IMG/VR virus record: IMGVR_UViG_3300037189_026801
Span: 1 to 39,415 of that record
Length of the DNA: 39,415 bases
DNA from: a virus
Reading direction: 5' to 3' (one strand)
The first letter of the stretch is position 1; every line of letters starts with the position of its first letter. Positions 965-38,831 of this stretch are shown here, piece by piece. The notes under the pieces are model-generated. The model was not told the origin of the DNA and did no database searches. It saw nothing but the letters and a program-made list of their open reading frames with translations. Position numbers and translations under genes: made by a program.

Positions 965-1768
965 ATGCGACTATTTGTGTCAATTTTGATTATTTTTTAC
1001 TCCTCTCTAAGTTTTGCCGGCACCCGCGACCCACATACGCCAGACGAGCAATACGTCGAGTTTGGCAAATCTTTTCCTTGGGTCGTGCAGATCTCGAATA
1101 CAATCGACTGCAAAAAGTGCCAAGACGTGCACGCGCAACGCGCGTCAGCCGTTGTGATTCGACCCAATTGGGCGCTAACAGCTGCTCACGTGGTCAAAGA
1201 CACAACAGAGAACGTCATCCTAATTGGCGATAAGGAGCACGTAATTACATATAAAGTCGTGCACCGTGACTTTGAAGAAGCCAAAGCCGGATTTTACGAC
1301 ATTGCGTTGTGCTACTCGCCAGACGATTTTGGGTTGGAATTTTACGTACCGCTGTACAAAAAAACAGACGAGGTCGGCAAACCAATTACAATTGCTGGCT
1401 GGGGCGCGACCGGGACTTTTTTAACAGGCGCTAGTCATGTAGATGGAAAACGTCGCGCCGGGCATAACAGGATTATTGCGGAGGAGAGCGCGATACTAAT
1501 TTGCAGCCCAGCGCGTCCAAAGCAATTCCAACTTGAATTTATGATCGCCCCAGGCGACTCAGGCGGCGGTATGTTTATTGGAAATGAGTTAGCCGGTATT
1601 AATTCATTTCTGGCTGCAGCAGACAAAAATCCTAACGGAACATATACTGATGAGAGCGCTTTTACGCGTGTAAGTCTGTATGTCGACTGGGTTGAGGCGC
1701 AAATCGAAAAATACGAAAAAGCTATGCGCGCCCAAGCTACCACTAACTCTGAGCTAGATATTAAATGA
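965..1768 (+). CDS. Exported trypsin-like serine protease (S1 family)
   Basis: This 267-residue protein has a clear signal peptide (residues about 1-18, MRLFVSILIIFYSSLSFAG), so it is likely exported to the periplasm or beyond. The full chymotrypsin-fold triad is visible: His75 in LTAAHVV, Asp112 in YDIALC and Ser199 in GDSGGG. A GWGATG motif also fits the family. A cysteine pair in KKCQ and near residue 180 could form disulfides. The start has a perfect AAGGAGG site at 954-960. Trypsin-like enzymes are uncommon in phages. Possible roles are degrading host envelope proteins, excluding other phages or processing an exported phage protein. The small membrane protein at 1765 overlaps its stop, suggesting co-translation. 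Confidence 0.92.
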   Translation: MRLFVSILIIFYSSLSFAGTRDPHTPDEQYVEFGKSFPWVVQISNTIDCKKCQDVHAQRASAVVIRPNWALTAAHVVKDTTENVILIGDKEHVITYKVVHRDFEEAKAGFYDIALCYSPDDFGLEFYVPLYKKTDEVGKPITIAGWGATGTFLTGASHVDGKRRAGHNRIIAEESAILICSPARPKQFQLEFMIAPGDSGGGMFIGNELAGINSFLAAADKNPNGTYTDESAFTRVSLYVDWVEAQIEKYEKAMRAQATTNSELDIK

Positions 1769-16080: not shown

Positions 16081-16176
16081 GTGAATCGCATTGTATCGCT
16101 ATTTGGCGTAGTTTGGATTAACTGGCCGCGTGATTACTGGCTTAACGCATTTAAAAAAGGAACAAAACATGGCTAA
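16081..16176 (+). CDS. Possible 31-residue peptide
   Basis: A GTG two bases after the previous stop opens a 31-codon frame (MNRIVSLFGVVWINWPRDYW...) rich in aromatic and hydrophobic residues. It ends by overlapping the start of the actin-like gene by eight bases. The chain of overlaps and the amphipathic composition make it plausible. There is no clear ribosome site and no homology can be judged. It may only be a leader region. Confidence 0.25.
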   Translation: MNRIVSLFGVVWINWPRDYWLNAFKKGTKHG

Positions 16177-17170
16177 AGGTTTAGACGTTGGTACTTCTTT
16201 TATCGTGCTCGCGCAGGACACTGAAAAAGGCGTGGCGTACAAAGACTTTCGTGACGCATTTTATGTAATTAAACCTACTACGCCGGTCGCTACAAAGATG
16301 ATCGAAAAAGGCCTGCAGGGGCGGACATTCGTCAAAGACGCCGACGGCAGCTTTATACTTCTCGGGCAGGACGCAATTGAAAAAGCGGTAGAGCGTAATG
16401 ACTCGGCCAAGCGTCCGATGTATCGCGGCGTGGTTTCGCCGAAGGAGCGCGACGCTAAGCGTGTTTTAGCGTACATACTTAAAGAGGTAGCGGGCATTGC
16501 CGCAACCCCGGGGGAGCAATTGGTTTTTTGCGTGCCCGCGCAGCCCGTCGACCAGCCCGACGAAGACTTTGATGTCGGTTATCACGAAGATGTAATAAAG
16601 ATGGTTCTTGCGGAGGTTGGCTATAGCGCGCGCGCTATTAATGAGGCTGAAGCGCTGTGCTATTCCGAATTAGAAAATGACGATTACACCGGCGTTGCTC
16701 TTTCGTGCGGCGCTGGCATGGTGAACTGCTGCGTCATGCTAAACGGCGAGCCAACTGTGATGTTTAGCACCACAAAGTCCGGCGATTGGGTAGATCGCAT
16801 GGCCGCCGTTGCCACAGCTGAACCTGACTCAGTGGTACAGGCAGAAAAAGAGCACGGAGATTTCACAATCGGCGAGCCGACAGACAATCCAATTTTGGCG
16901 GCCGTTTCTAGCTATTATGAGCGGCTAATTGATTACACCACTAAGCAGTTAGCTAGCGCAATGGCCGGGCATAAGCTGCTGCCCAAGTTTAAAGAGCCGC
17001 TGCCGGTCGTAGTGGCTGGCGGCACGAGTCGCGCAAAGGGTTTTATTGAACTATTTTCGGCCAAACTGGCAGAGAATGAATTTCCGTTGCCAGTTGCCGT
17101 AGTACGACACGCTAGCGATCCGCTTCATGCTGTTGCGCGCGGCTGTTTAGTGGCCGCAAAAATTTTGTGA
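16169..17170 (+). CDS. Actin-like ATPase (ParM/Alp type)
   Basis: This 333-residue protein starts at the ATG at 16169 with an AAAGGA site. A start at 16130 would add 13 unlikely residues. Actin/Hsp70-fold motifs are present in order: phosphate-1 KGLDVGTS (3-10), connect-1 region NEAEALCYSEL, phosphate-2 ALSCGAGMVNCCV (about 181-193), and the adenosine motif VVAGGTSRAKGF (about 290-301). The length fits ParM-like proteins. Such filaments move plasmid or phage DNA, so the protein may position the phage genome or factory in the host. No ParR-like adaptor is obvious, though the membrane-anchored protein upstream is adjacent. The gene ends in a GTGA overlap with a GT25 gene. Confidence 0.85.
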   Translation: MAKGLDVGTSFIVLAQDTEKGVAYKDFRDAFYVIKPTTPVATKMIEKGLQGRTFVKDADGSFILLGQDAIEKAVERNDSAKRPMYRGVVSPKERDAKRVLAYILKEVAGIAATPGEQLVFCVPAQPVDQPDEDFDVGYHEDVIKMVLAEVGYSARAINEAEALCYSELENDDYTGVALSCGAGMVNCCVMLNGEPTVMFSTTKSGDWVDRMAAVATAEPDSVVQAEKEHGDFTIGEPTDNPILAAVSSYYERLIDYTTKQLASAMAGHKLLPKFKEPLPVVVAGGTSRAKGFIELFSAKLAENEFPLPVAVVRHASDPLHAVARGCLVAAKIL

Positions 17171-23412: not shown

Positions 23413-24234
23413 ATGGCCAAAAGAAAAATTGTAAAACCGGGGCAAGTACTAAAAGACGCCGAGATAGTCGCGCGGTTATTTACGCTCGGATACTTTGGCG
23501 ATCTACCGTGGGCGAAAGTTCGCGGGCTGCATGGCGCGAAGCTAGACAGCGCAATTCGCGAGTATCAGCAATTTCACGGACTTAAATCTGACGGAATTGT
23601 CGGAGTAAAGACTGCGCACGTGCTGTTGCGGCACCGTTGCGGCCTACCCGACTTTAACATCTCCGGCAGTGACGCTCCATGCAGATGGCCAATGCCGCGG
23701 ATTACCTACTACGCCAAACTTAGACTGCCCGGTATTACAGAAGAGCAGGCAGACCTAGCTTACGATACAGCTTTTGCGCAGTGGGCTGCTGTGTGCAACG
23801 TAGAGCCAGTCCGCGTGCACGACCACAACCTAGCGAACATTTTTGCCAAGTCTGGCGTGGGTAGAGCTGTCAACTTAGATGACCGCGGGGGTACGCTTGC
23901 GTGGAGTGAGCTGCCGTGCAATGTCACTGAACACATACAGCTTGATCAAATGTACGACGAGGCTGAGGATTGGTCATTTAACATGGCTGTCGCCGTTATT
24001 TGCCACGAACTTGGCCATGCGCTTGGTTTAGCGCATCTCGGTAAGGGCAATTTAATGGCGCCGTACTACGACCCAAACGTTAGAGCGCCGCAAAAGGGCG
24101 ACATCAAGGAAATGGTTAAATTGTACGGAAAGCCAGCCAAATCGGCCCGCGAGTTAAACACGAATGCAGAACTTTTGGTGGCTGGTACAATCATGATTAA
24201 TGGAAAACCGTACAAACTTGTACCGCAGACTTGA
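23413..24234 (+). CDS. Matrixin-type metalloprotease with peptidoglycan-binding domain and cysteine-switch-like motif
   Basis: This 273-residue protein is built like a matrix metalloprotease proenzyme. Residues about 12-72 form a PG_binding_1-like domain (AIREYQQFHGLKSDGIVG...TAHVL). RCGLPD (75-80) resembles the MMP PRCGxPD switch, whose Cys coordinates zinc. The catalytic domain has ICHELGHALGLAHLGKGNLMAP, with zinc ligands His198, His202 and His208 and catalytic Glu199, plus the Met-turn at 215. No signal peptide is seen, so it may be a virion or lysis protein rather than Sec-exported. It probably cuts proteins near the cell wall, and activation by release of Cys76 is inferred. A tail of about 45 residues follows. 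Confidence 0.9.
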   Translation: MAKRKIVKPGQVLKDAEIVARLFTLGYFGDLPWAKVRGLHGAKLDSAIREYQQFHGLKSDGIVGVKTAHVLLRHRCGLPDFNISGSDAPCRWPMPRITYYAKLRLPGITEEQADLAYDTAFAQWAAVCNVEPVRVHDHNLANIFAKSGVGRAVNLDDRGGTLAWSELPCNVTEHIQLDQMYDEAEDWSFNMAVAVICHELGHALGLAHLGKGNLMAPYYDPNVRAPQKGDIKEMVKLYGKPAKSARELNTNAELLVAGTIMINGKPYKLVPQT

Positions 24235-29096: not shown

Positions 29097-32000
29097 ATGC
29101 CAACACCTGGGTCTTCTAACTCGATTCTCGGCGGCTCGCGCGAATTTGGCGACGTGCCCGCTTTGCGCAGTAATATTTTTAGCCAGGCGCAAGAATCTGT
29201 AGTTGAAGTGGCGCCGTTTGAACCGGTGTTCACGCGCGAAGATATATTCGACACGGTGGCGAATCAGGCAAAACAAATTAAGCCAATTCAAAACGACCTG
29301 TACACATTAAGCCTCGGCGACGTTAAGTACGAGGGGCCAGAGCGCTTCACCAAAAAAGATCACAAAAATGCGGTTTTGTCCCACAGCAGCTTAGCGCGTA
29401 AGTTGCGGGGTACGTGGAATTTAACGGATAACAAAACGGGGCAAGTTGTCGCGAATCGCCGCGCTACTTTAGCTAACGTGCCGTACATGACCGACGCCGG
29501 CACGTTCGTGCACAATGGCGTTGAGTACACACTGGCGCATCAGATGCGATTACGCCCTGGCGTGTACACGCGTGAAAAAGACAACGGTGAGCTTGAAGCG
29601 CATGTTAACGTGTTGCCAGGCCGCGGCCGCATGCACCGATACTTCTTAGATCCCAAAACAGGCGTGTTTAAGATTAATATCGGGCAAGCGAATATTCCGC
29701 TTATGCCGCTGCTCAAAATTATGGGCGTGTCTGAGGGCGACATCCGCAAAACTTGGGGCAATGAATTAACCGCTGTAAACATCGAAAAGGGCGACGCGGG
29801 CACGGTGGATAAGCTTTACAACCGGCTTGTGTATAAGGCGCAGCCTGGAATTGACGCGGCTGCTAAGCAAAAAGCAATTGCGGAAGAATTTGCCAAGATG
29901 GAACTTGACGAGGAAGTCACAAAAAGAACACTTGGCCGGAAAATAAAAAATTTAACGCCTGATGCCATTTTAGATATTACAAAAAAGCTGATCGCCGTTA
30001 ATCGTAAAGAGGCCGATCCGGACGATCGCGACAGTATGGCGTTTCAGCAGATTCTCGGGCCGGAAGACTTGATTGCCGAGCGTTTTACAAAAGATCGCGC
30101 GATGTTACGGCAATTGTTGTGGAAAGCCACCGCAAAAAAATCTTTGGATCACGTACCGACGGGCGCATTTAACAAAGCTATTGTGTCGGCGCTGATTGGC
30201 TCGGGATTAGGCTCTAGCCTAGAAGAAATCAATCCGGCTGAAATTTTTGACCATCAGACGCGCGTAACCAGACTTGGCGAGGGCGGCATCGGTTCGTTAG
30301 ACGCGGTGCCAGTAGAAAGCCGATCGGTACAGCCTAGTCACTTCGGCTTTGTGGATTATTTAAGAACGCCGGAAAGCGGTAAGGTTGGCGTAGATATGCG
30401 ATTTGCTCGCGGCGCCGTAAAAGGATCTGACGGCAAAATATACGTCAAAGTAAAAAACATGGCTAACGGGCGCATGGAGTACAAGTCGCCCCAGGATATC
30501 GCGGACACCCCTCTCGTGTTTCCCGGCGAAGACAAAACAGATTTGCCAAACGTCGCGGCTATTGTTAACGGAAAGATGAAGTACATTCCGCGCGAAGAGG
30601 CGAAATACATTCTTCCGACGATGGATTCTTCGTTCTCGATGTTGTCGAATATGGTGCCGCTAAAATCCATGATGAAAGGCCATCGCGTCATCATGGGTAG
30701 CCGAATGTTTACTCAGGCACTCCCGCTAGCCAACGCCGAAGCTCCGCTAATCCAATCCGCGACGGCCGACGACGAAAGTAAATCATACGAAGATTTGATG
30801 GGCAAAAATCTCGGCGCCATAACAGCCGACGAGGTTTCGCAGGTAGTCTCGGTTAACCCGGATGAAATTGTTTTGCGAAATCAAAAAGGCGACACAAAGA
30901 CAATCGACCTGTATAACGACGCGCCTTTTAATCGTAAAACATTCTGGACGCAAAAAGCGCTAGTACAGCCCGGCGACACAGTAAAGCCTGGACAAATTTT
31001 AGCTAAATCAAACTTCACAAACGACAAAGGAACGGCAGCGCTTGGTTTAAATATGCGCGTTGGTTATTTGCCGTTTAAAGGCCTGGTATACGACGATTCT
31101 GTAGTTATTTCGCAGTCGGCAGCGAAGCGTTTAACGTCGGATCATATGTATCAGCACGAGGCGGACGCAGACGACAGCACATTTATTGATAAGAAAAAAT
31201 TTATCAGTCTTTTCCCGAGCGAATACGACCGCCGCACGCTAGAGAACTTTGACGATAATGGCGTTATTAAAAAAGGCGCTATGGTAAACTTCGGCGATCC
31301 GCTGTTGCTAGTCACGAAGCAGCGCGACACGACTTACGGGCAGGTCCACCGCGGACAAAAAGCGAATTTTGTTAATGATGCCGTGACCTGGGACCACCAC
31401 TCTTCTGGCATTGTTACAGACGTCGCTAAAACTAAAAAAGGCTATAGCGTTGTTGTTAAAAGCCAGGCGGAAATGGAAGTCGGCGATAAGCTCACCGGCC
31501 GTTTCGGCGACAAAGGAGTTGTCGCGGGTATTATTGCCGATGATGAGATGCCAAAAGACGCGCAAGGCCGTCCGCTCGAGCTTTTAGTAAGTCCGCTCGG
31601 ATTAGCCAGCCGCGTTAATCCGTCGCAGATTGTTGAGGCAGCGCTTGGCAAGGTGGCTGAAAAGACTGGACAGCCGTACAAAATAAAAGACTTCGATGAC
31701 GCTAAAGATTTGATTGAATTTGCGCGGACAGAGCTGCGCAAAAATCAACTAGAAGATCTTGAAGAGGTCGTTGACCCGGAAACTGGCCGTAAGATAAAAG
31801 GCGTGCTGACGGGAAATAGATTTTTTATGAAACTGCACCACACCAGCGAAAGCAAAGCCCAAGGCAGGTCGACGGGCGGCTATACCGCAGAAGGCGCGCC
31901 AGCAAAGGGCGGTAGTGGCGGCGCTAAACGCGTAGGCATGCTTGATCTTGGCGCACTTTTAAGTCATGGCGCCGGCAAAGTAATTCGTGACGCCAAGATG

Positions 32001-33542
32001 GTGCGCGGCCAGGCCAATCCAGAATACTGGTCGCAGTTTATGGCCGGATATGACCCGCCGTTACCGCGTATTCCTAACGTATACGCCAAATTTGTCGAGC
32101 AGCTTCGTGGCGCGGGTATTAATACCGTACGCACAGGCAACAAGACAAACATAATGGCTCTTACTGACACAGACATTGACGAACTTGCCGGCGATCGCGA
32201 ACTCGAAAATTCTGAGACGGTAGATTGGAAGTCTAATCTGCGACCAAAGGCGGGCGGTCTGTTTGACGAAAAATTAACTGGCGGACATAACGGAAATCGT
32301 TGGTCTAAAATCACACTTTCCGAGCCAATGCCTAATCCGGTTATGGAAGAGCCGATTCGTCGGGTGCTTGGCATTACGGAAAAACAAATGCGCGAGGTTA
32401 TTGCTGGTCGCGCGCAGATAAACAATCAAACAGGCCCAAAAGCTATTCAAACAGCGTTGTCGAACATAGACGTGCCTAAAGCTATCGAGCAGGCGCGCAT
32501 GGACATTCAATCTGGGCGTAAGACAGCGCGAGATGCTGCCGTGCGTCGGTTAGCTTTTTTAAAGAGCGCGGAAAAAACTGGCGTACATCCAAAAAATTGG
32601 ATGCTCACAAAAATGGGCGTTATTCCGCCAATGTTCCGCCCCGTGTCAACAATGGGGCAAAAGAAAATGCCGCTCGTTGCCGACGCGAACTACTTATACA
32701 AAGAATTGCTAGACGCTAACTCTGCGTTAAAAGACGCTTCCGGCGTGCTCGAGGACGTGGGCGACGAGAGACTAGGCGTATATGACGCGATGAAGTCTGT
32801 TACGGGTTTAGGCGATCCGCAGCAAGCCAAAAACGCTGAACGACGCGTGCGCGGATTTTTAAAAGAAATTTTTGGCTCGTCGCCGAAGTATGGCACGGTG
32901 CAGCGAAAATTATTGAGCACCACGGTCGACCTAGTTGGTCGCGCTGTAATTACGCCCAATCCAGATCTTGATATGGATTCAGTTGCTCTGCCTGAAGACA
33001 AAGCATGGGAGATATACAAGCCATTTATTGTGCGCTCTCTCGTTCGACGAGGATTGCCGCGTATGCAGGCGTTAAAATCCTTCGACGAGCGCAATAGAGA
33101 GGCCACTGCGACGTTACAGCAGCAAATGAGTTCGCGGCCAATTATTATTAATCGTGCGCCTGTATTGCATCGTTACGGCATGATGGCGTTCTATCCGCGA
33201 CTCACAAAAAACAAAACAATGGAAGTAAGCCCGCTGGTTACAAAAGGCTTCGGCGCCGACTTTGACGGCGACGCCATGCAGTTTCACGTTCCGAGCACTG
33301 ACTCTGCGGCTCAAGAAGCGGCAGAAAAAATGTTGCCCAGTAAAAATCTTTTTTCAGTGGCCTCGTTCAAAGGGCACTTTACTCCTGTAGCCGAATTTCA
33401 TTCTGGTTTGTACGTAGCGTCTAATAAAATTAATAAAAAGTCACCTCCGCGCGTATTCAGAAATCAAAAGGACGCAATAGCCGCTTACCGCCGCGGCGAA
33501 ATAGAGGTCGACACGCCGGTACATATTGTGGAGAATAGTTAG
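29097..33542 (+). CDS. RNA polymerase beta subunit fused to N-terminal half of beta-prime
   Basis: This 1481-residue protein joins most of RpoB (about 1-1010) to the first half of RpoC (about 1040-1481). Beta signatures in order are VPYMTDAGTFVHNG, GSRMFTQALPLANAEAPLI, GQILAKSNFTNDKG, YLPFKGLVYDDS, GDKLTGRFGDKGV (Lys798 and Lys806, spaced as the two active-site lysines of bacterial beta), SPLGLASRVNPSQIVE and KAQGRSTGGY. Beta-prime signatures are GLFDEKLTGG, INRAPVLHRYGMMAF and the magnesium-binding ADFDGD (Asp1388, 1390, 1392). The N-terminal beta-prime zinc domain is absent, and the protein has no cysteine. It ends in an AAYRRGEIEVDTPV segment, before the bridge helix, and is completed by the protein at 34463. 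It should form the catalytic core of a phage-encoded multisubunit polymerase. Confidence 0.95.
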   Translation: MPTPGSSNSILGGSREFGDVPALRSNIFSQAQESVVEVAPFEPVFTREDIFDTVANQAKQIKPIQNDLYTLSLGDVKYEGPERFTKKDHKNAVLSHSSLARKLRGTWNLTDNKTGQVVANRRATLANVPYMTDAGTFVHNGVEYTLAHQMRLRPGVYTREKDNGELEAHVNVLPGRGRMHRYFLDPKTGVFKINIGQANIPLMPLLKIMGVSEGDIRKTWGNELTAVNIEKGDAGTVDKLYNRLVYKAQPGIDAAAKQKAIAEEFAKMELDEEVTKRTLGRKIKNLTPDAILDITKKLIAVNRKEADPDDRDSMAFQQILGPEDLIAERFTKDRAMLRQLLWKATAKKSLDHVPTGAFNKAIVSALIGSGLGSSLEEINPAEIFDHQTRVTRLGEGGIGSLDAVPVESRSVQPSHFGFVDYLRTPESGKVGVDMRFARGAVKGSDGKIYVKVKNMANGRMEYKSPQDIADTPLVFPGEDKTDLPNVAAIVNGKMKYIPREEAKYILPTMDSSFSMLSNMVPLKSMMKGHRVIMGSRMFTQALPLANAEAPLIQSATADDESKSYEDLMGKNLGAITADEVSQVVSVNPDEIVLRNQKGDTKTIDLYNDAPFNRKTFWTQKALVQPGDTVKPGQILAKSNFTNDKGTAALGLNMRVGYLPFKGLVYDDSVVISQSAAKRLTSDHMYQHEADADDSTFIDKKKFISLFPSEYDRRTLENFDDNGVIKKGAMVNFGDPLLLVTKQRDTTYGQVHRGQKANFVNDAVTWDHHSSGIVTDVAKTKKGYSVVVKSQAEMEVGDKLTGRFGDKGVVAGIIADDEMPKDAQGRPLELLVSPLGLASRVNPSQIVEAALGKVAEKTGQPYKIKDFDDAKDLIEFARTELRKNQLEDLEEVVDPETGRKIKGVLTGNRFFMKLHHTSESKAQGRSTGGYTAEGAPAKGGSGGAKRVGMLDLGALLSHGAGKVIRDAKMVRGQANPEYWSQFMAGYDPPLPRIPNVYAKFVEQLRGAGINTVRTGNKTNIMALTDTDIDELAGDRELENSETVDWKSNLRPKAGGLFDEKLTGGHNGNRWSKITLSEPMPNPVMEEPIRRVLGITEKQMREVIAGRAQINNQTGPKAIQTALSNIDVPKAIEQARMDIQSGRKTARDAAVRRLAFLKSAEKTGVHPKNWMLTKMGVIPPMFRPVSTMGQKKMPLVADANYLYKELLDANSALKDASGVLEDVGDERLGVYDAMKSVTGLGDPQQAKNAERRVRGFLKEIFGSSPKYGTVQRKLLSTTVDLVGRAVITPNPDLDMDSVALPEDKAWEIYKPFIVRSLVRRGLPRMQALKSFDERNREATATLQQQMSSRPIIINRAPVLHRYGMMAFYPRLTKNKTMEVSPLVTKGFGADFDGDAMQFHVPSTDSAAQEAAEKMLPSKNLFSVASFKGHFTPVAEFHSGLYVASNKINKKSPPRVFRNQKDAIAAYRRGEIEVDTPVHIVENS

Positions 33543-33566
33543 ACGCCGAATTTTATGGAGGTTTAA

Positions 33567-34226
33567 ATGAAGACCGTTAATTCCGAACTACTGCGCATGG
33601 CGCGCGAGCAATTTAACAAACAGGCGGTAGCGCCGCCGGCTGGCGCTGCGCCCGCAGATCCAAATGCGGCTATGGCTATGGATCCTAATGCTATGTCGGC
33701 TGCGCAGGCTGCTCCTATGGATATGGGAATGGGCGCTCCGGCGCCAGCGCCTGCCGCGGCTCCTGCGCCCCAAGCGCCGGCTGCTGGCGGAGCTGCTCCG
33801 CAGCAAAAACTCAAGCCAGAGCAAATGATGCAAATGATCGATTATCGTATGTATAATATGCAACAGCAACTTACTGCGATTATGAATGCTTTAGGCGTGC
33901 AGTTGCCGCCGGAGGCAATTGTGCTGCCGCCGGGATCTACATCTGCTCCTGCACCAGAAACCGCTCTTCCCGGCGGCGCTGGCGCTCCCACTGCCGCCCC
34001 GCCGCCTGAAGGCGGCGACCCCGCTGCGGCACAACTACCAACGGACGTATACGCGGGACAAGATCCGTCGCAAACTGGCGGCGCTGTACAGCCAATTCCT
34101 CCGGTAAAAGCCGCTAATTGGTGGGAAATAACCTCCGTCCGAAATAAATTTCCGCAAAATAATCTAAGCGAAACTGCTGAGGCGGTCAGGGCACTTTATA
34201 ACAGCTTAAACACCAATGCGCGTTAA
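33567..34226 (+). CDS. Ala/Pro/Met-rich protein between the two polymerase genes
   Basis: This 219-residue protein has a GGAGG site seven bases upstream of its ATG. A short basic helix (about 1-20), a low-complexity Ala/Pro/Met stretch (about 21-80), a central helix KPEQMMQMIDYRMYNMQQQLTA-type (about 83-105, possible coiled coil), a second Pro/Ala-rich part, and a structured end with NWWEITSVRNKF. It has no cysteine. It lies between the genes for the two parts of beta-prime, so it may be a polymerase-linked or virion protein, but no polymerase motif is present. It overlaps the next ORF by 11 bases. Confidence 0.7.
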   Translation: MKTVNSELLRMAREQFNKQAVAPPAGAAPADPNAAMAMDPNAMSAAQAAPMDMGMGAPAPAPAAAPAPQAPAAGGAAPQQKLKPEQMMQMIDYRMYNMQQQLTAIMNALGVQLPPEAIVLPPGSTSAPAPETALPGGAGAPTAAPPPEGGDPAAAQLPTDVYAGQDPSQTGGAVQPIPPVKAANWWEITSVRNKFPQNNLSETAEAVRALYNSLNTNAR

Positions 34227-34461
34227 AAATCAGTACAACCTTCAGCCGACAGAGTTTGAGTCGCACGCTGTCGTATTAGAAGATAGCGAAGGAAATATAA
34301 TTTTTGCCGCTGTTGAGCTGGAAGACGGGACTATTTTAGCCGCTCAGGCTGGGGATAAAGATTTTGAACCATTGTTGAAATACATGCAAATTGACAAAGT
34401 AACCGCTGTAACAGAAATAAAACCAAAATCTGTACAAGAAATGAGCCGGCTGCTTAACTAA
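34216..34461 (+). CDS. Small unknown protein between the two polymerase genes
   Basis: This 81-residue protein starts inside the end of the previous gene and stops one base before the beta-prime C-terminal gene. It is predicted mostly beta (HAVVLEDSEGNIIFAAVELEDGTILAA), with a short helical end (PKSVQEMSRLLN). No cysteine, no membrane segment. It may be a small accessory to the polymerase by position alone. No family is recognised and its ribosome site is weak. Confidence 0.65.
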   Translation: MRVKNQYNLQPTEFESHAVVLEDSEGNIIFAAVELEDGTILAAQAGDKDFEPLLKYMQIDKVTAVTEIKPKSVQEMSRLLN

Positions 34462-34462
34462 A

Positions 34463-36352
34463 ATGCTTAAAACAACTCTTGGTCAAATTTTGATAAACGA
34501 CGCCCTGCCAGAAGATTTGCGGGATTATAACCGCGTAATGAACAAGAAAAACATCGGGGCATTAGCGACGGAGCTGGCGCAAAAATATCCCGACAAATAC
34601 CGCGAAATTGTAAAACGACTTTTAGATGTCGGTCGCGAGACGTCATATACGACTAATGGATTATCTATTGGTTTGGATCACATTCGGCCAACTGTTTCCG
34701 CGCTGCAAATTCAAAATGATGTAAAAAAAAGACTGCGCGGTATTCTTGCGGACCGATCACTTGACGATAAGTCACGTAATTTAAAAATTTTGGAGCTAAC
34801 ATCGTCGGCGCAAAAACAGCTCGTAGACAAAGTATTTACAGACGCTGAAGACCAAGATAATCCTTTATTCCACCAGGTCAGCGGCGGCGTAAAAGGCAAC
34901 AAGTTTCAGCTCAACAGCATTATCGGCGCGGACATGCAATATGTGGATCATAAAAACGATCCCATTCCAATTCCTGTCATGCGCAGTTACGGCCAAGGTC
35001 TGCGGCCTGTCGAATATTTTGCGGGCGCATTCGGGACGCGTAAAGGTCTTATGGATCTTAAAACAGCGACGTCAGATGCCGGGTTCTTCGCCAAGCAGCT
35101 GACGCAGATGAACCACAGGCTACTTGTAACCGCAGACGACGATGATGACGAAGACCCTGAAGTTAAAAAATTAGCGGAAACACGCGGCCTGCCGGCAGAA
35201 GTAGACGACCCAGACAACGAAGGTTCGCTGCTGGCTAGAGCGGCTGGGCCGTATAAACGCAATACAATTTTGACGCCTAAAATCCTGAAACATATTAAAG
35301 AACTAGGCGTAAAAGATATTCTTGTGCGTAGCCCTACAGTTGGCGGCCCCGCGGACGGCGGCGTATATGCCCGCGATGTCGGTTATCGCGAGAAGGGCCG
35401 CCTGCCACCCATTGGCGACTATGTCGGCATAGCGGCGGCGCAGGCATTAGCCGAGCCAGTTACTCAAAGTCAGATTAGCTCTAAACATTCAGGCGGTGTC
35501 GGCGGAGCTGGCGCTATTGCTGGCTTTAAGGCGCTAAACGCGCTAGTGCAGGTGCCCGAAAAATATCCAGATGGCGCGGCTCACTCACAGCTAGACGGCA
35601 CGGTACAAGAAGTACGTCCAGCGCCACAGGGCGGTACATATGTAAATATTAACGGACAAGATCACTACGTCCCGACAGGTATTCCGCTAAAGGTAAAAAA
35701 AGGCGATGCGCTTGAGGCGGGTGACGTATTGTCAGAAGGAATGCCCAGCCCGGCAGAAATTGTAAAATATAAGGGCGTCGGAGAAGGTCGCCGGTATTTC
35801 GTGTCGGCCATGAAGCAGGTTTTGAGTAATAGCGGAATTGGTTCTCATCGCAGAAACGTCGAGCTGCTGGCGCGCGGTTTAATTAATCACGTCAGGCTTA
35901 CAGACGAGTATGGCGATTATGTTCCAGATGATGTCGTGCCGTATTCGATGTTAGAGCGTAACTGGACTCCGCGCGCCGGCTCCGTGCGGTCGAATCCGAA
36001 GGGTTTAACTGGACATTATTTGGAAAAGCCCGTATTGCATTATTCAATCGGCACAAAGATTGGAAAGTCGGTAGTAGATAATTTAACAAAATACGGCATT
36101 AATGAAATTGAGGCGCATAAAGAGCCGCCCCCATTTGAGCCCGAGATGATTCGCGGCATGGCCAGTATCTCTAACGACCCTGACTGGATGACGCGACTAA
36201 TGGGATCTTATCAGCAAAAAAGCCTGCTTAGTGCCACGCAAAGAGGCGGAGAAAGCGATCTTGGCGGCAGCAGTTTTGTGCCTGGCTTAGCGCGCGGAGA
36301 GACGTTTGGCGTTAGTAATGTAACAAGTGGTTGGAACCCAAATCAGAAATAG
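34463..36352 (+). CDS. RNA polymerase beta-prime C-terminal part (bridge helix and trigger loop)
   Basis: This 629-residue protein continues where the fusion protein ends. It starts with TTLGQILINDALPE, the counterpart of TTVGR... in bacterial beta-prime. It then has TNGLSIGLDHIRP, the bridge-helix/trigger-loop core FAGAFGTRKGLMDLKTATSDAGFFAKQL (about 187-214), VRSPTVGG...GVYARDVGY, where the four-Cys zinc site of bacterial beta-prime should be but is missing, and VGIAAAQALAEPVTQSQISSKHSGG (about 318-342), the classic GEPGTQ region. There is no cysteine. The tail (about 520-629) is not clearly alignable and ends near NPNQK. The split falls close to, but before, the cyanobacterial RpoC1/RpoC2 break, with the TTLG region in the second protein. 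Confidence 0.95.
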   Translation: MLKTTLGQILINDALPEDLRDYNRVMNKKNIGALATELAQKYPDKYREIVKRLLDVGRETSYTTNGLSIGLDHIRPTVSALQIQNDVKKRLRGILADRSLDDKSRNLKILELTSSAQKQLVDKVFTDAEDQDNPLFHQVSGGVKGNKFQLNSIIGADMQYVDHKNDPIPIPVMRSYGQGLRPVEYFAGAFGTRKGLMDLKTATSDAGFFAKQLTQMNHRLLVTADDDDDEDPEVKKLAETRGLPAEVDDPDNEGSLLARAAGPYKRNTILTPKILKHIKELGVKDILVRSPTVGGPADGGVYARDVGYREKGRLPPIGDYVGIAAAQALAEPVTQSQISSKHSGGVGGAGAIAGFKALNALVQVPEKYPDGAAHSQLDGTVQEVRPAPQGGTYVNINGQDHYVPTGIPLKVKKGDALEAGDVLSEGMPSPAEIVKYKGVGEGRRYFVSAMKQVLSNSGIGSHRRNVELLARGLINHVRLTDEYGDYVPDDVVPYSMLERNWTPRAGSVRSNPKGLTGHYLEKPVLHYSIGTKIGKSVVDNLTKYGINEIEAHKEPPPFEPEMIRGMASISNDPDWMTRLMGSYQQKSLLSATQRGGESDLGGSSFVPGLARGETFGVSNVTSGWNPNQK

Positions 36353-36428
36353 GGTGGATTAAAAAGCCAAATCACGGTAAATTATCAAGTACCGTATTTG
36401 TCGCGTTTTGAGCCGCATGGAGGTGGCC

Positions 36429-38831
36429 GTGTACAGTAAAAACAATAAAAAGCCTGCGTGGACCACAAAATTAGCCAATATGTCGCGGTATTCTCGCGAC
36501 AATGTTAAGGCGGCCACGTTAGGCGGCCGGGGCGACGATATCCCGTTTGAGCAAGCTTTCAGCAACTTAGCGCATGCGTATCTGCAAGATAAAGCGCCCG
36601 GACTGCTGGAGCACGAGATCGGTTTCCAGCTCCTAGACCGAAACGCTGAAAATACCAAAGCTGTCGGTATTTTTGCGTTTAAAATCGGGTCGCTGTGGCT
36701 GTACGCGCCGATGTTCTTTCTTAACGGCGACCTCAAAGGCCATGAACTTCTGTACCTGAAAAATCAGGACATGTTCGTGCCGATGAAAGAAAATTGGATT
36801 AATTATCTAATTAACCGCAAGCCTAGCGTGCTCGGGTCTGGCATTGAGCGGCAAATGGCACAATACGGCCAGCGCCAACCGGACTTTACGCAAATGTCGC
36901 GCAGCCCGTCTAAATTTGGTTCGGCCAGGCCGACACTAAAAGAAATGATGACGGCCGTGCTTCCGACGCTGGCCAAAACAGCGACGCTTAACACTGCGGC
37001 AGCTTTTAACGACCTAGGCAAAAGCCTGGATCTGAAAAAGTTTTTAAAAGAAGCGCGTTTGCAGACAATTAATTTTCTAGTAAAGACTTGTCAGAATTCG
37101 CCGGAGCTGGCGGAAGCTTTTGACGCGTTTCACGGCCTAGATGTGATTAAAGAAGCCGTAGACGCCGCCAAAGCTCGGGACAATGCGACCAAAATTGCAA
37201 GCGTACTCTCCGAAGCGCCGGAGACACCCGCCGCCGTTAAAACGCTGCGCATTATTTCTATCGATGCTACGCTGCAAACAGCCGCCCCGCACGACATTAC
37301 TGAAGAAGAGCAGGAAAAACTGCTGAATGATGGCGTGCTTATTCTAGATCAGCGCGATCGCGATAACGTGTCCGTGGCGTACAACATTCAAGCTGAGAAA
37401 AAGTTTTTTAATCCCACAGAGAGCGGGCTGTACGAAATACTCGTAAAACCCGGCGAGATCGAGCGATGCTATGTTGCCGTGTATCCAATGGGCGCGTGCA
37501 AGCGATCGGATTTTGTAACGGTTGTCCGATTGGATGGCCGTAAGGAGTGGATTAATACTCGCGCTGATCACGTGTGGGCTATGGCCCATGTAGACGGCGA
37601 AGAGTTTGATTCCTGGTATAACTCGCTGCCGGAGGCTAATACAATTTCCGGCGATGCGAGGTACATGGCTATTAACAAACGCGGCGACACTACAGTTCCG
37701 TTCCGCAAAATTCGCGAATACGGCTCTGACGAGTTTGGCACATCTGCCTACGAAGTTCACATGGAGGATCATTCAAAATTTCCTCCGCGCGGCAGCATCT
37801 CGGGTTGTTGCTACCACGACCCGCTTAATTATGACAAGTATCGCGATGGCGTGCGTATCCATCTAAACGGCAAAAAGGGCTCTAGCCTTCGGGCAAGCAT
37901 GGGCGACATATTCGTCCCTGAAGGCTACAAGCTTCTTAAAGTCAGCAAGGGCGAAGACGACGCTGAAAGCGCTGAATTAGGTCAGGGTATGTGCGGATGC
38001 GGCGAAAGTGATCCACCGGCGCTTCAGCCCGGCACGCTACTCGATGTGCAGAACGCTTTAATGAATAAAACTGCTGCTTTGGTTATTACGCACAACGGCA
38101 GCGAAGTCGAAATAAATGACGGCGCGCGTCTGTCTGAGAAAAAGGCGCTTGTTTCGCTGGTACAGACTCACGGCTTGCGAGAGTCCGCCGCCCGTGAGCT
38201 ATTAAAGCGTGCCGCCGCCAGCAAAAAGTATGAATGCCGCGTTAAGTACGCCAATCCGTACGGCGCGCCGATGATGATTAATGACGCGCCTGATGCGCCA
38301 ACTATGCCCGAGCCGGTGTATGGCGGCGAAAATATTATGGCAACACGCGTGCCTACACAACTCGGAATTGATATTGGCGTGCCTGTCCCGGGCATGAGCG
38401 CCATGCGCACCGACCGGTCGATTTACAATCCCAACACTATGTACGACCAAACGCCTATGGACAAAATGCAAGATAGCGAGTTACAACGTATTCTTGCCGC
38501 GGCTCAGTCCGGCCAGCGCGAAGTATTCGATACCGCGATGGTTGGCAGTATGCTCCGAGCCGTTCGTGACGACTCGATGGTCGAGCGGTATATGGGTGAT
38601 CTAATGAAAGGTCTAGATAAGATAGGCCGAATTTTGTTTATGTTTTACTGGCACGGCGACAAATTTGCTGAGCGCTACGGCAAATCTGATATGCCCGAAT
38701 TAGAAGACGCGCTACGCAATGCGTTTGAAATGCTTGGCGACGTAATTCTGTTCCTGAAACAAAAGACGATTGAACCGTATCCGACCGATATGTCGCAGTC
38801 TGTAGATTTAAGCGCGGTTGCTAACTCTTAA
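36429..38831 (+). CDS. Large conserved phage protein, probable virion component
   Basis: The protein has 800 residues, starting with GTG at 36429 (MYSKNNKKPAW) behind a perfect GGAGGT. Starts at 36408 or 36417 are possible but less supported. The N-terminal region (about 1-150) is conserved-looking, with LGGRGDDIPFEQAFSNLAHAY and FLNGDLKGHELLYLK. A helical middle (about 180-280) is followed by a beta-rich domain (about 290-560) with GSISGCCYHDP and MCGCGESD, and a helical C-terminus (SMLRAVRDDSMVERYMGDLMKGL, then WHGDKFAERYGKSDMPELEDAL). I recall similar proteins in other large phages without a function. Size and place ahead of probable structural genes fit a structural role. It is not recognisably a portal, capsid or terminase. 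Confidence 0.7.
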   Translation: MYSKNNKKPAWTTKLANMSRYSRDNVKAATLGGRGDDIPFEQAFSNLAHAYLQDKAPGLLEHEIGFQLLDRNAENTKAVGIFAFKIGSLWLYAPMFFLNGDLKGHELLYLKNQDMFVPMKENWINYLINRKPSVLGSGIERQMAQYGQRQPDFTQMSRSPSKFGSARPTLKEMMTAVLPTLAKTATLNTAAAFNDLGKSLDLKKFLKEARLQTINFLVKTCQNSPELAEAFDAFHGLDVIKEAVDAAKARDNATKIASVLSEAPETPAAVKTLRIISIDATLQTAAPHDITEEEQEKLLNDGVLILDQRDRDNVSVAYNIQAEKKFFNPTESGLYEILVKPGEIERCYVAVYPMGACKRSDFVTVVRLDGRKEWINTRADHVWAMAHVDGEEFDSWYNSLPEANTISGDARYMAINKRGDTTVPFRKIREYGSDEFGTSAYEVHMEDHSKFPPRGSISGCCYHDPLNYDKYRDGVRIHLNGKKGSSLRASMGDIFVPEGYKLLKVSKGEDDAESAELGQGMCGCGESDPPALQPGTLLDVQNALMNKTAALVITHNGSEVEINDGARLSEKKALVSLVQTHGLRESAARELLKRAAASKKYECRVKYANPYGAPMMINDAPDAPTMPEPVYGGENIMATRVPTQLGIDIGVPVPGMSAMRTDRSIYNPNTMYDQTPMDKMQDSELQRILAAAQSGQREVFDTAMVGSMLRAVRDDSMVERYMGDLMKGLDKIGRILFMFYWHGDKFAERYGKSDMPELEDALRNAFEMLGDVILFLKQKTIEPYPTDMSQSVDLSAVANS

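What the first reader, a model, noticed from the sequence alone, without database searches (positions are those of the whole stretch)
29097..36352. Phage RNA polymerase with a beta/beta-prime-N fusion and a separate beta-prime-C gene
Seen: one 1481-aa ORF carries nearly complete beta motifs, then beta-prime motifs through DFDGD. A second 629-aa ORF carries the bridge helix, trigger loop and the AEPVTQ region. Known: phiKZ-type phages split both beta and beta-prime, Helicobacter and Wolbachia fuse whole rpoB and rpoC, and cyanobacteria split beta-prime. A fusion of beta to half of beta-prime plus a separate second half combines two of these and I do not recall it in a described phage enzyme. 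No alpha, omega or sigma is seen in this window.
Basis: partly seen in the sequence, partly recalled or inferred. Interest (0 to 1): 0.92.

Follow-up and report, generated by a model that had tools for sequence, protein, structure and literature searches.

The report
Phage RNA polymerase, fused then split
A widespread group of large bacterial viruses carries its own RNA-making enzyme whose two big parts are rewired, with the first part fused to half of the second and the other half made separately; in one cultured relative the enzyme was already found in virus particles, but the rewiring went unnoticed.

Summary
ORF 29097-33542 (1481 aa) is a complete RNA polymerase beta subunit fused to the N-terminal part of beta' through DFDGD. 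ORF 34463-36352 (629 aa) is the rest of beta', with bridge helix and trigger loop. It is not an error: 79 distinct fused/split pairs were recovered, forming one clade with the same fusion and split points. Active-site residues are invariant, the beta' zinc finger is deleted, and no alpha or omega is recognisable in relatives.

It is not unprecedented. Salmonella phage Arash (gp206+gp216) and Vibrio phages D69/D181/D148 have it. The Arash paper calls the proteins beta and beta', does not mention a fusion, and reports gp206 as the most-detected virion protein. Yeast killer plasmids have a beta-beta'N plus beta'C enzyme, split elsewhere.

New here: the clade's breadth; a sigma-like protein (Arash gp10, also seen in virions) in 27 of 28 clade records; a single RNAP per genome; one contig with everything in one 2032-aa ORF; inteins and a group I intron in these genes. 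Most likely a sigma-dependent virion polymerase for early transcription. The catalytic core is strongly supported; the virion role in this phage is inferred.

The parts
29097..33542 (+). beta-beta'N fusion gene, 1481 aa
29097..32150 (+). beta portion, residues 1-1018
   Evidence: matches only beta/Rpb2 chains, best E 7.9e-70
31482..31517 (+). beta barrel motif GDKLTGRFGDKG with the two catalytic lysines (residues 796-807)
   Evidence: both Lys 29/29 in the non-redundant clade set
32151..33539 (+). beta' N-terminal portion, residues 1019-1481
   Evidence: matches beta' and cyanobacterial gamma chains, best E 8.9e-49
32253..32303 (+). site where the beta' zinc-binding domain is deleted (GGLFDEKLTGGHNGNRW)
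   Evidence: alignments
33258..33272 (+). DFDGD, the catalytic metal-binding loop (residues 1388-1392)
   Evidence: three Asp 29/29
33567..34226 (+). 219-aa Ala/Pro-rich ORF between the two RNAP genes, conserved in near relatives only, function unknown
34216..34461 (+). 81-aa ORF directly upstream of beta'C, homologues at that place in divergent clade members, function unknown
34463..36352 (+). beta'C gene, 629 aa
   Evidence: model pLDDT 85 matches T. thermophilus beta' at E 9.2e-29
34997..35113 (+). bridge helix region (residues 179-217)
   Evidence: Arg and Lys 40/40; long helix 182-217 in the model
35423..35551 (+). trigger loop region (residues 321-363), AEPVTQ...KHSGG
   Evidence: trigger-loop His 40/40
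36408..38831 (+). homologue of Arash gp218, a protein detected in Arash virions; marks the virion-gene neighbourhood
   Evidence: E 5.5e-67; gp218 in virion proteome

Best explanation
The two genes encode the core of an active bacterial-type DNA-dependent RNA polymerase reduced to two polypeptides: beta-beta'N, which carries both double-psi barrels and so both halves of the active site, and beta'C, which carries the bridge helix, trigger loop and the C-terminal parts. They reassemble into one crab-claw core. Holding beta and beta'N together in cis plausibly replaces the alpha dimer, and beta'C docks at the split in the loop after the barrel. Promoter specificity comes from a phage sigma-like protein of the Arash gp10 family, encoded elsewhere in the genome. 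Core and sigma are packaged in the virion and injected to start early transcription without host RNAP. Shown: the genes, the conserved active site, the clade, no recognisable alpha or omega and a sigma-like gene in relatives, and (published) virion detection in Arash. Inferred: activity, assembly, sigma pairing, and packaging in the window's own phage.
For: All catalytic residues invariant across a clade as divergent as 33% identity; one clade, SH-aLRT 100; same fusion and split points throughout; no alpha in 18 records and no convincing omega in 20, while cellular controls ring; gp10-family sigma-like gene in 27/28 clade records and 0/4 mReC-like records; one beta and one beta' per genome in 20/20; in Arash virions gp206 has 128 unique peptides, gp216 40, gp10 24 (PMC10585845); the gene after beta'C is a homologue of the Arash virion protein gp218.
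Against: No biochemistry for any member. The Arash proteome also lists likely carry-over enzymes (ligase, primase), and its authors leave carry-over open. The sigma-like gene is not in the window fragment, and its sigma region 2 is below Pfam's cut-off. One clade record (L092's) lacks a gp10 match. Host alpha could still be recruited.
Confidence: 0.66

Rival explanations
1. An active core of the same make-up, but a non-virion enzyme: made during infection for middle or late genes, with the Arash detection being carry-over.
For: The Arash authors offer this reading; ligase, primase and ribonucleotide reductase are also in their list.
Against: gp206 is the top protein with 128 unique peptides while the likely carry-over enzymes have mostly 2-3 (up to 11); gp216 and gp10 co-occur in the same list; the genes lie among virion-protein genes.
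Confidence: 0.27
2. The proteins are virion structural or DNA-ejection proteins that descend from RNAP but no longer transcribe.
For: Zinc sites deleted or eroded; very abundant in Arash virions.
Against: Invariant catalytic Asp, Lys, trigger-loop His and bridge-helix residues; co-occurring sigma-like gene.
Confidence: 0.04
3. Sequencing or assembly error: a normal rpoB-rpoC pair wrongly joined and cut.
For: None found.
Against: 79 distinct pairs with the same joints, conserved intervening genes, and complete cultured phage genomes.
Confidence: 0.01

Closest known systems
Salmonella phage Arash gp206/gp216 (OQ632216, PMC10585845) and Vibrio phages D69/D181/D148
   Same: Same fusion point, same split point, same downstream gp218 homologue, same clade.
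   Different: About 33% (fusion) and 25% (beta'C) identical to the window; Arash keeps the cysteines of the second beta' zinc site; other genes lie between the two RNAP genes. The fusion was not noted in the paper.
Yeast cytoplasmic virus-like element RNAP, K2ORF6p + K2ORF7p (PMC6211774)
   Same: Large subunit = beta fused to part of beta'; small subunit = C-terminal part of beta'.
   Different: Split downstream of the bridge helix; most of the clamp missing; eukaryotic host; capping enzyme and helicase partners; split place makes independent origin likely.
phiKZ/AR9-type jumbo phage vRNAP and nvRNAP (PMC7598289)
   Same: Phage multisubunit RNAP without alpha or omega; beta' split after the catalytic barrel.
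   Different: There beta is itself split and not fused to beta', there are two RNAPs per phage, and no recognisable sigma.
mReC phages (Weinheimer and Aylward 2020, PMC7481178)
   Same: Caudovirales with RNAP alignable to cellular beta and beta'.
   Different: Described with separate beta and beta' (each at least 800 aa). The mReC-like loci found here mostly have beta' then beta as two genes and form a different clade.
Cyanobacterial gamma/beta' (RpoC1/RpoC2) split
   Same: beta' broken between barrel and bridge helix.
   Different: beta not fused; break roughly 35-60 residues further downstream, estimated from the PDB alignments.
Helicobacter/Wolbachia rpoB-rpoC fusion
   Same: beta C-terminus joined to beta' N-terminus.
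   Different: There beta' is whole. Only L242 in this clade is fully fused.

Membership tests
Multisubunit (two double-psi-barrel) RNA polymerase | beta barrel lysines and beta' DxDxD loop, with bridge helix and trigger loop | tested here: met
Multisubunit (two double-psi-barrel) RNA polymerase | alpha and omega subunits, as in cellular enzymes | tested here: not met
   No PF01193 match in 18 records, no convincing PF01192 match in 20, including complete Arash and D69; the window itself is a fragment
Multisubunit (two double-psi-barrel) RNA polymerase | catalyses DNA-dependent RNA synthesis | not testable with these tools
   needs biochemistry
Arash-type phage RNAP (clade defined here) | same beta/beta' fusion and same beta' split site | tested here: met
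Arash-type phage RNAP (clade defined here) | monophyly with Arash and the Vibrio D-phages | tested here: met
   SH-aLRT 100 for the clade; L242 nests inside on a long branch
Arash-type phage RNAP (clade defined here) | gp10-family sigma-like gene in the same genome | tested here: inconclusive
   Present in 27/28 clade records including the window's near relatives; absent from the 39-kb window, which is incomplete
phiKZ-type jumbo phage RNAP | beta split into two or more polypeptides | tested here: not met
   beta is whole and fused to beta'N
phiKZ-type jumbo phage RNAP | two RNAP sets per genome | tested here: not met
   one beta and one beta' in 20/20 relatives' records; window is a fragment
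mReC | separate beta and beta' genes, beta' of at least 800 aa with the catalytic motif | tested here: not met
   beta'C is 629 aa and lacks DFDGD, which is in the fusion
mReC | membership in the published mReC clade | tested here: inconclusive
   Lies outside my mReC-like set, but that set could not be checked against the published list
Yeast VLE (K2ORF6p/K2ORF7p) RNAP | beta-beta'N fusion plus separate beta'C | tested here: met
   layout as described in PMC6211774
[quoted passage not shown]
   here the bridge helix is on the small polypeptide
crAss-like / YonO single-chain RNAP | both barrels and the rest of the core in one highly divergent chain | tested here: not met
   two polypeptides here, readily alignable to cellular subunits

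The most novel reading that the evidence does not exclude
A widespread, undescribed class of virion RNA polymerase: a two-polypeptide, alpha- and omega-free core (beta-beta'N plus beta'C) injected together with its own dedicated sigma factor, that is, a complete sigma-dependent holoenzyme delivered by the particle, in a lineage that re-cut its subunit borders by fusion and splitting and in one member (L242) runs as a single 2032-aa chain.
Probability: 0.5. Interest if true: 0.78.

Novelty: new variant of a known kind. Interest (0 to 1): 0.62.

Why it matters
How phage multisubunit RNAPs hold together without alpha is stated as an open question (PMC7598289). This clade offers a natural test, because the fusion ties the two catalytic barrels together in cis. 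It could also be, to my knowledge, the first virion RNAP with a recognisable sigma partner, and it occurs in phages already in culture, so it is directly testable. Its fused-split and fully fused members show how the borders of this ancient enzyme can move. Surveys that require separate full-length subunits would probably miss it.

Tried and rejected
1) Sequencing error joining or splitting ORFs: rejected. 2) The GenBank 'phage' records OR844998, OR846602 and MT836236 as unfused close relatives: their subunits look bacterial (intact zinc finger, rpoB-rpoC order) and group with Acinetobacter, so they are probably bacterial contamination and were used only as outgroup; PHROGs 24349 and 25354 probably reflect the same. 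3) L242 as ancestral full fusion: the tree nests it inside the split clade (SH-aLRT 95 in one tree, 76 in the other), but the AU test does not reject placing it outside (p 0.097); undecided. 4) Strict sigma region 2 search in the window's near relatives: negative; the sigma-like family appeared through region 4 and then its own profile. 5) PF07068 capsid as a link to mReC: nothing rang anywhere, so uninformative. 6) The 81-aa protein as omega: no Pfam support. 7) Consensus sigma70 promoters and terminators: below the shuffled expectation, uninformative. 8) Host through genome contigs: one 4.3-kb fragment only. 9) Whole-model fold search of the fusion: the listed matches are beta chains covering only the beta half, so the beta'N half rests on sequence.

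Full report
CHECK. The 1481-aa product is a whole beta (residues 1-1018) followed by the N-terminal part of beta' (1019-1481); the 629-aa product is the remainder of beta'. Pfam and solved structures support the three segments. The split lies in the loop between the catalytic barrel and the bridge-helix region: beta'N residue 453 aligns with E. coli RpoC 544, and beta'C begins at the TT(V/P)GR motif that follows in RpoC, so the break is at roughly RpoC 550-570 (the E. coli numbering is partly from my own knowledge of the sequence). The fusion joins the last beta helix to the start of beta' with about ten linker residues. The beta' zinc-binding domain is deleted in all 29 non-redundant members; the second zinc site is lost in most, including the window. 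The catalytic residues are untouched: three Asp 29/29, two beta Lys 29/29, trigger-loop His 40/40, bridge-helix Arg and Lys 40/40. AlphaFold models: beta'C pLDDT 85, best Foldseek match T. thermophilus beta' at E 9.2e-29; beta-beta'N residues 525-1481 pLDDT 80, its beta half matching RpoB chains with Z 31-38.

NOT AN ERROR, AND NOT ALONE. Scans of IMG/VR with the fused protein, its alignment and the beta'C alignment returned over a hundred loci. By profile, they show beta and beta'N in one ORF and beta'C in a separate ORF, in 143 measurable loci always downstream on the same strand, at a median distance of about 1 kb; a few members have further breaks or are cut by contig ends. There are 79 distinct pairs, on contigs up to 226 kb. 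Four cultured phages share the layout: Salmonella phage Arash (gp206 1525 aa, gp216 606 aa) and Vibrio phages D69, D181 and D148. Fusion and split points coincide at 33% and 25% identity. In a tree with bacterial RNAPs, the YerA41/Carin-5 phages and an mReC-like set, they form one clade at SH-aLRT 100. A separate scan gave about 70 phage loci of another type, mostly a whole 885-980-aa beta' followed by a separate beta. I call these mReC-like; I could not check them against the published list.

A FULLY FUSED MEMBER. L242/L251 (IMGVR_UViG_3300033146_003879, 183 kb) has beta, beta'N and beta'C in one 2032-aa ORF, without the zinc finger, like the rest. It nests inside the split clade near L163 but on a long branch; lying outside is not rejected (AU p 0.097). 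So either beta and beta' fused completely first and beta' then split, or one lineage re-fused. It rests on one contig.

PARTNERS. No alpha was found in 18 records and no convincing omega in 20, both sets including complete Arash and D69; the same searches ring in cellular controls. Each of 20 records has one beta and one beta', unlike phiKZ-type phages with two RNAPs. Weak sigma region-4 hits led to a family of about 235-280 aa homologous to Arash gp10. Pfam gives sigma region 3 at E 3.5e-10 and region 4 at 2.3e-5. A profile of this family finds it in 27 of 28 clade records, among them Arash, D69 and L242, and in none of four mReC-like records. It is not in the window fragment. Arash also encodes a second, conventional sigma (gp196).

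VIRION EVIDENCE. The Arash paper (PMC10585845) lists gp206 as the most-detected virion protein (3516 spectra, 128 unique peptides), with gp216 (1210; 40), gp10 (467; 24) and gp218 (1149; 36). It names gp206 beta and gp216 beta', and the text search found no mention of a fusion; in my alignment gp206 holds the beta' catalytic aspartates. gp196 is not in the table. The authors say carry-over of abundant enzymes is possible. In the window the gene after beta'C (36408-38831) is a gp218 homologue (E 5.5e-67), so the RNAP sits in the same virion-gene neighbourhood. This supports, but does not prove, packaging in the window's phage.

HOW IT MAY HAVE ARISEN. These genes attract mobile elements. 15 of 79 distinct pairs carry in-frame insertions of more than 100 aa; two of the three inserts checked have intein or LAGLIDADG homing-endonuclease domains, the third had no match. 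D181 has a group I intron (RF00028, E 6.3e-25) and an HNH endonuclease gene inside the fused gene. Intron-driven splitting has been proposed for phiKZ-type RNAPs (PMC7598289). That it made this split is inference.

COMPARISON. The same kind of layout is known: yeast cytoplasmic virus-like elements have a beta-beta'N fusion plus beta'C, described as unique in 2018 (PMC6211774), but split downstream of the bridge helix and lacking most of the clamp. phiKZ-type phages and cyanobacteria split beta' nearby but not at the same spot, and their beta is not fused. I therefore file this as a new variant of a known kind, not categorically new. In the held literature no paper names this architecture in a phage; most subscription journals, and bioRxiv preprints, were not searchable.

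VERDICT. Observation confirmed; interpretation partly supported. The enzyme is real and conserved. Its architecture is undescribed for phages in the papers I could search, though already deposited and, in Arash, detected in virions. Interest 0.62.

Noticed in passing
window 16130-17170 (+): 346-aa protein matches Pfam Volactin (PF25216) at E 2.9e-62, an actin-fold family named, to my knowledge, after a haloarchaeal protein; unexpected in a phage.
   Followed up: no
window 965-1768 (+): Trypsin-like serine protease, Pfam E 2.2e-17.
   Followed up: no
window 23413-24234 (+): Matrixin-type metalloprotease with a peptidoglycan-binding domain; candidate lysis or entry protein.
   Followed up: no
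L155, L092, L057 and other clade loci, inside the RNAP genes: In-frame insertions of more than 100 aa in 15 of 79 distinct pairs; L155 and L092 inserts carry intein or LAGLIDADG domains, at sites in beta, near the beta' catalytic loop and near the trigger loop.
   Followed up: partly
L010:9506-9786 (Vibrio phage D181) and L010:5709-5916: Group I introns; the first lies inside the fused RNAP gene with an HNH homing endonuclease.
   Followed up: yes
L242:4602-10700 (IMGVR_UViG_3300033146_003879): Single 2032-aa ORF with beta, beta'N and beta'C all fused.
   Followed up: partly
window 34216-34461 (+): 81-aa ORF just upstream of beta'C, with homologues at the same place in divergent members; a possible small accessory subunit.
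   Followed up: partly
L249:6033-10868; L230; L248: Other odd phage RNAPs: a 1612-aa ORF with beta'N and only a trace of beta'C, and mReC-like loci with 1379- and 1510-aa beta ORFs.
   Followed up: no
L174 (YerA41) against L175 (Carin-5): Related phage RNAPs, one with beta' split in two genes and one with it whole, so beta' splitting recurs in phages.
   Followed up: no
GenBank OR844998, OR846602, MT836236: Records filed as phages carry bacterial-type rpoB-rpoC and are probably bacterial contamination.
   Followed up: partly
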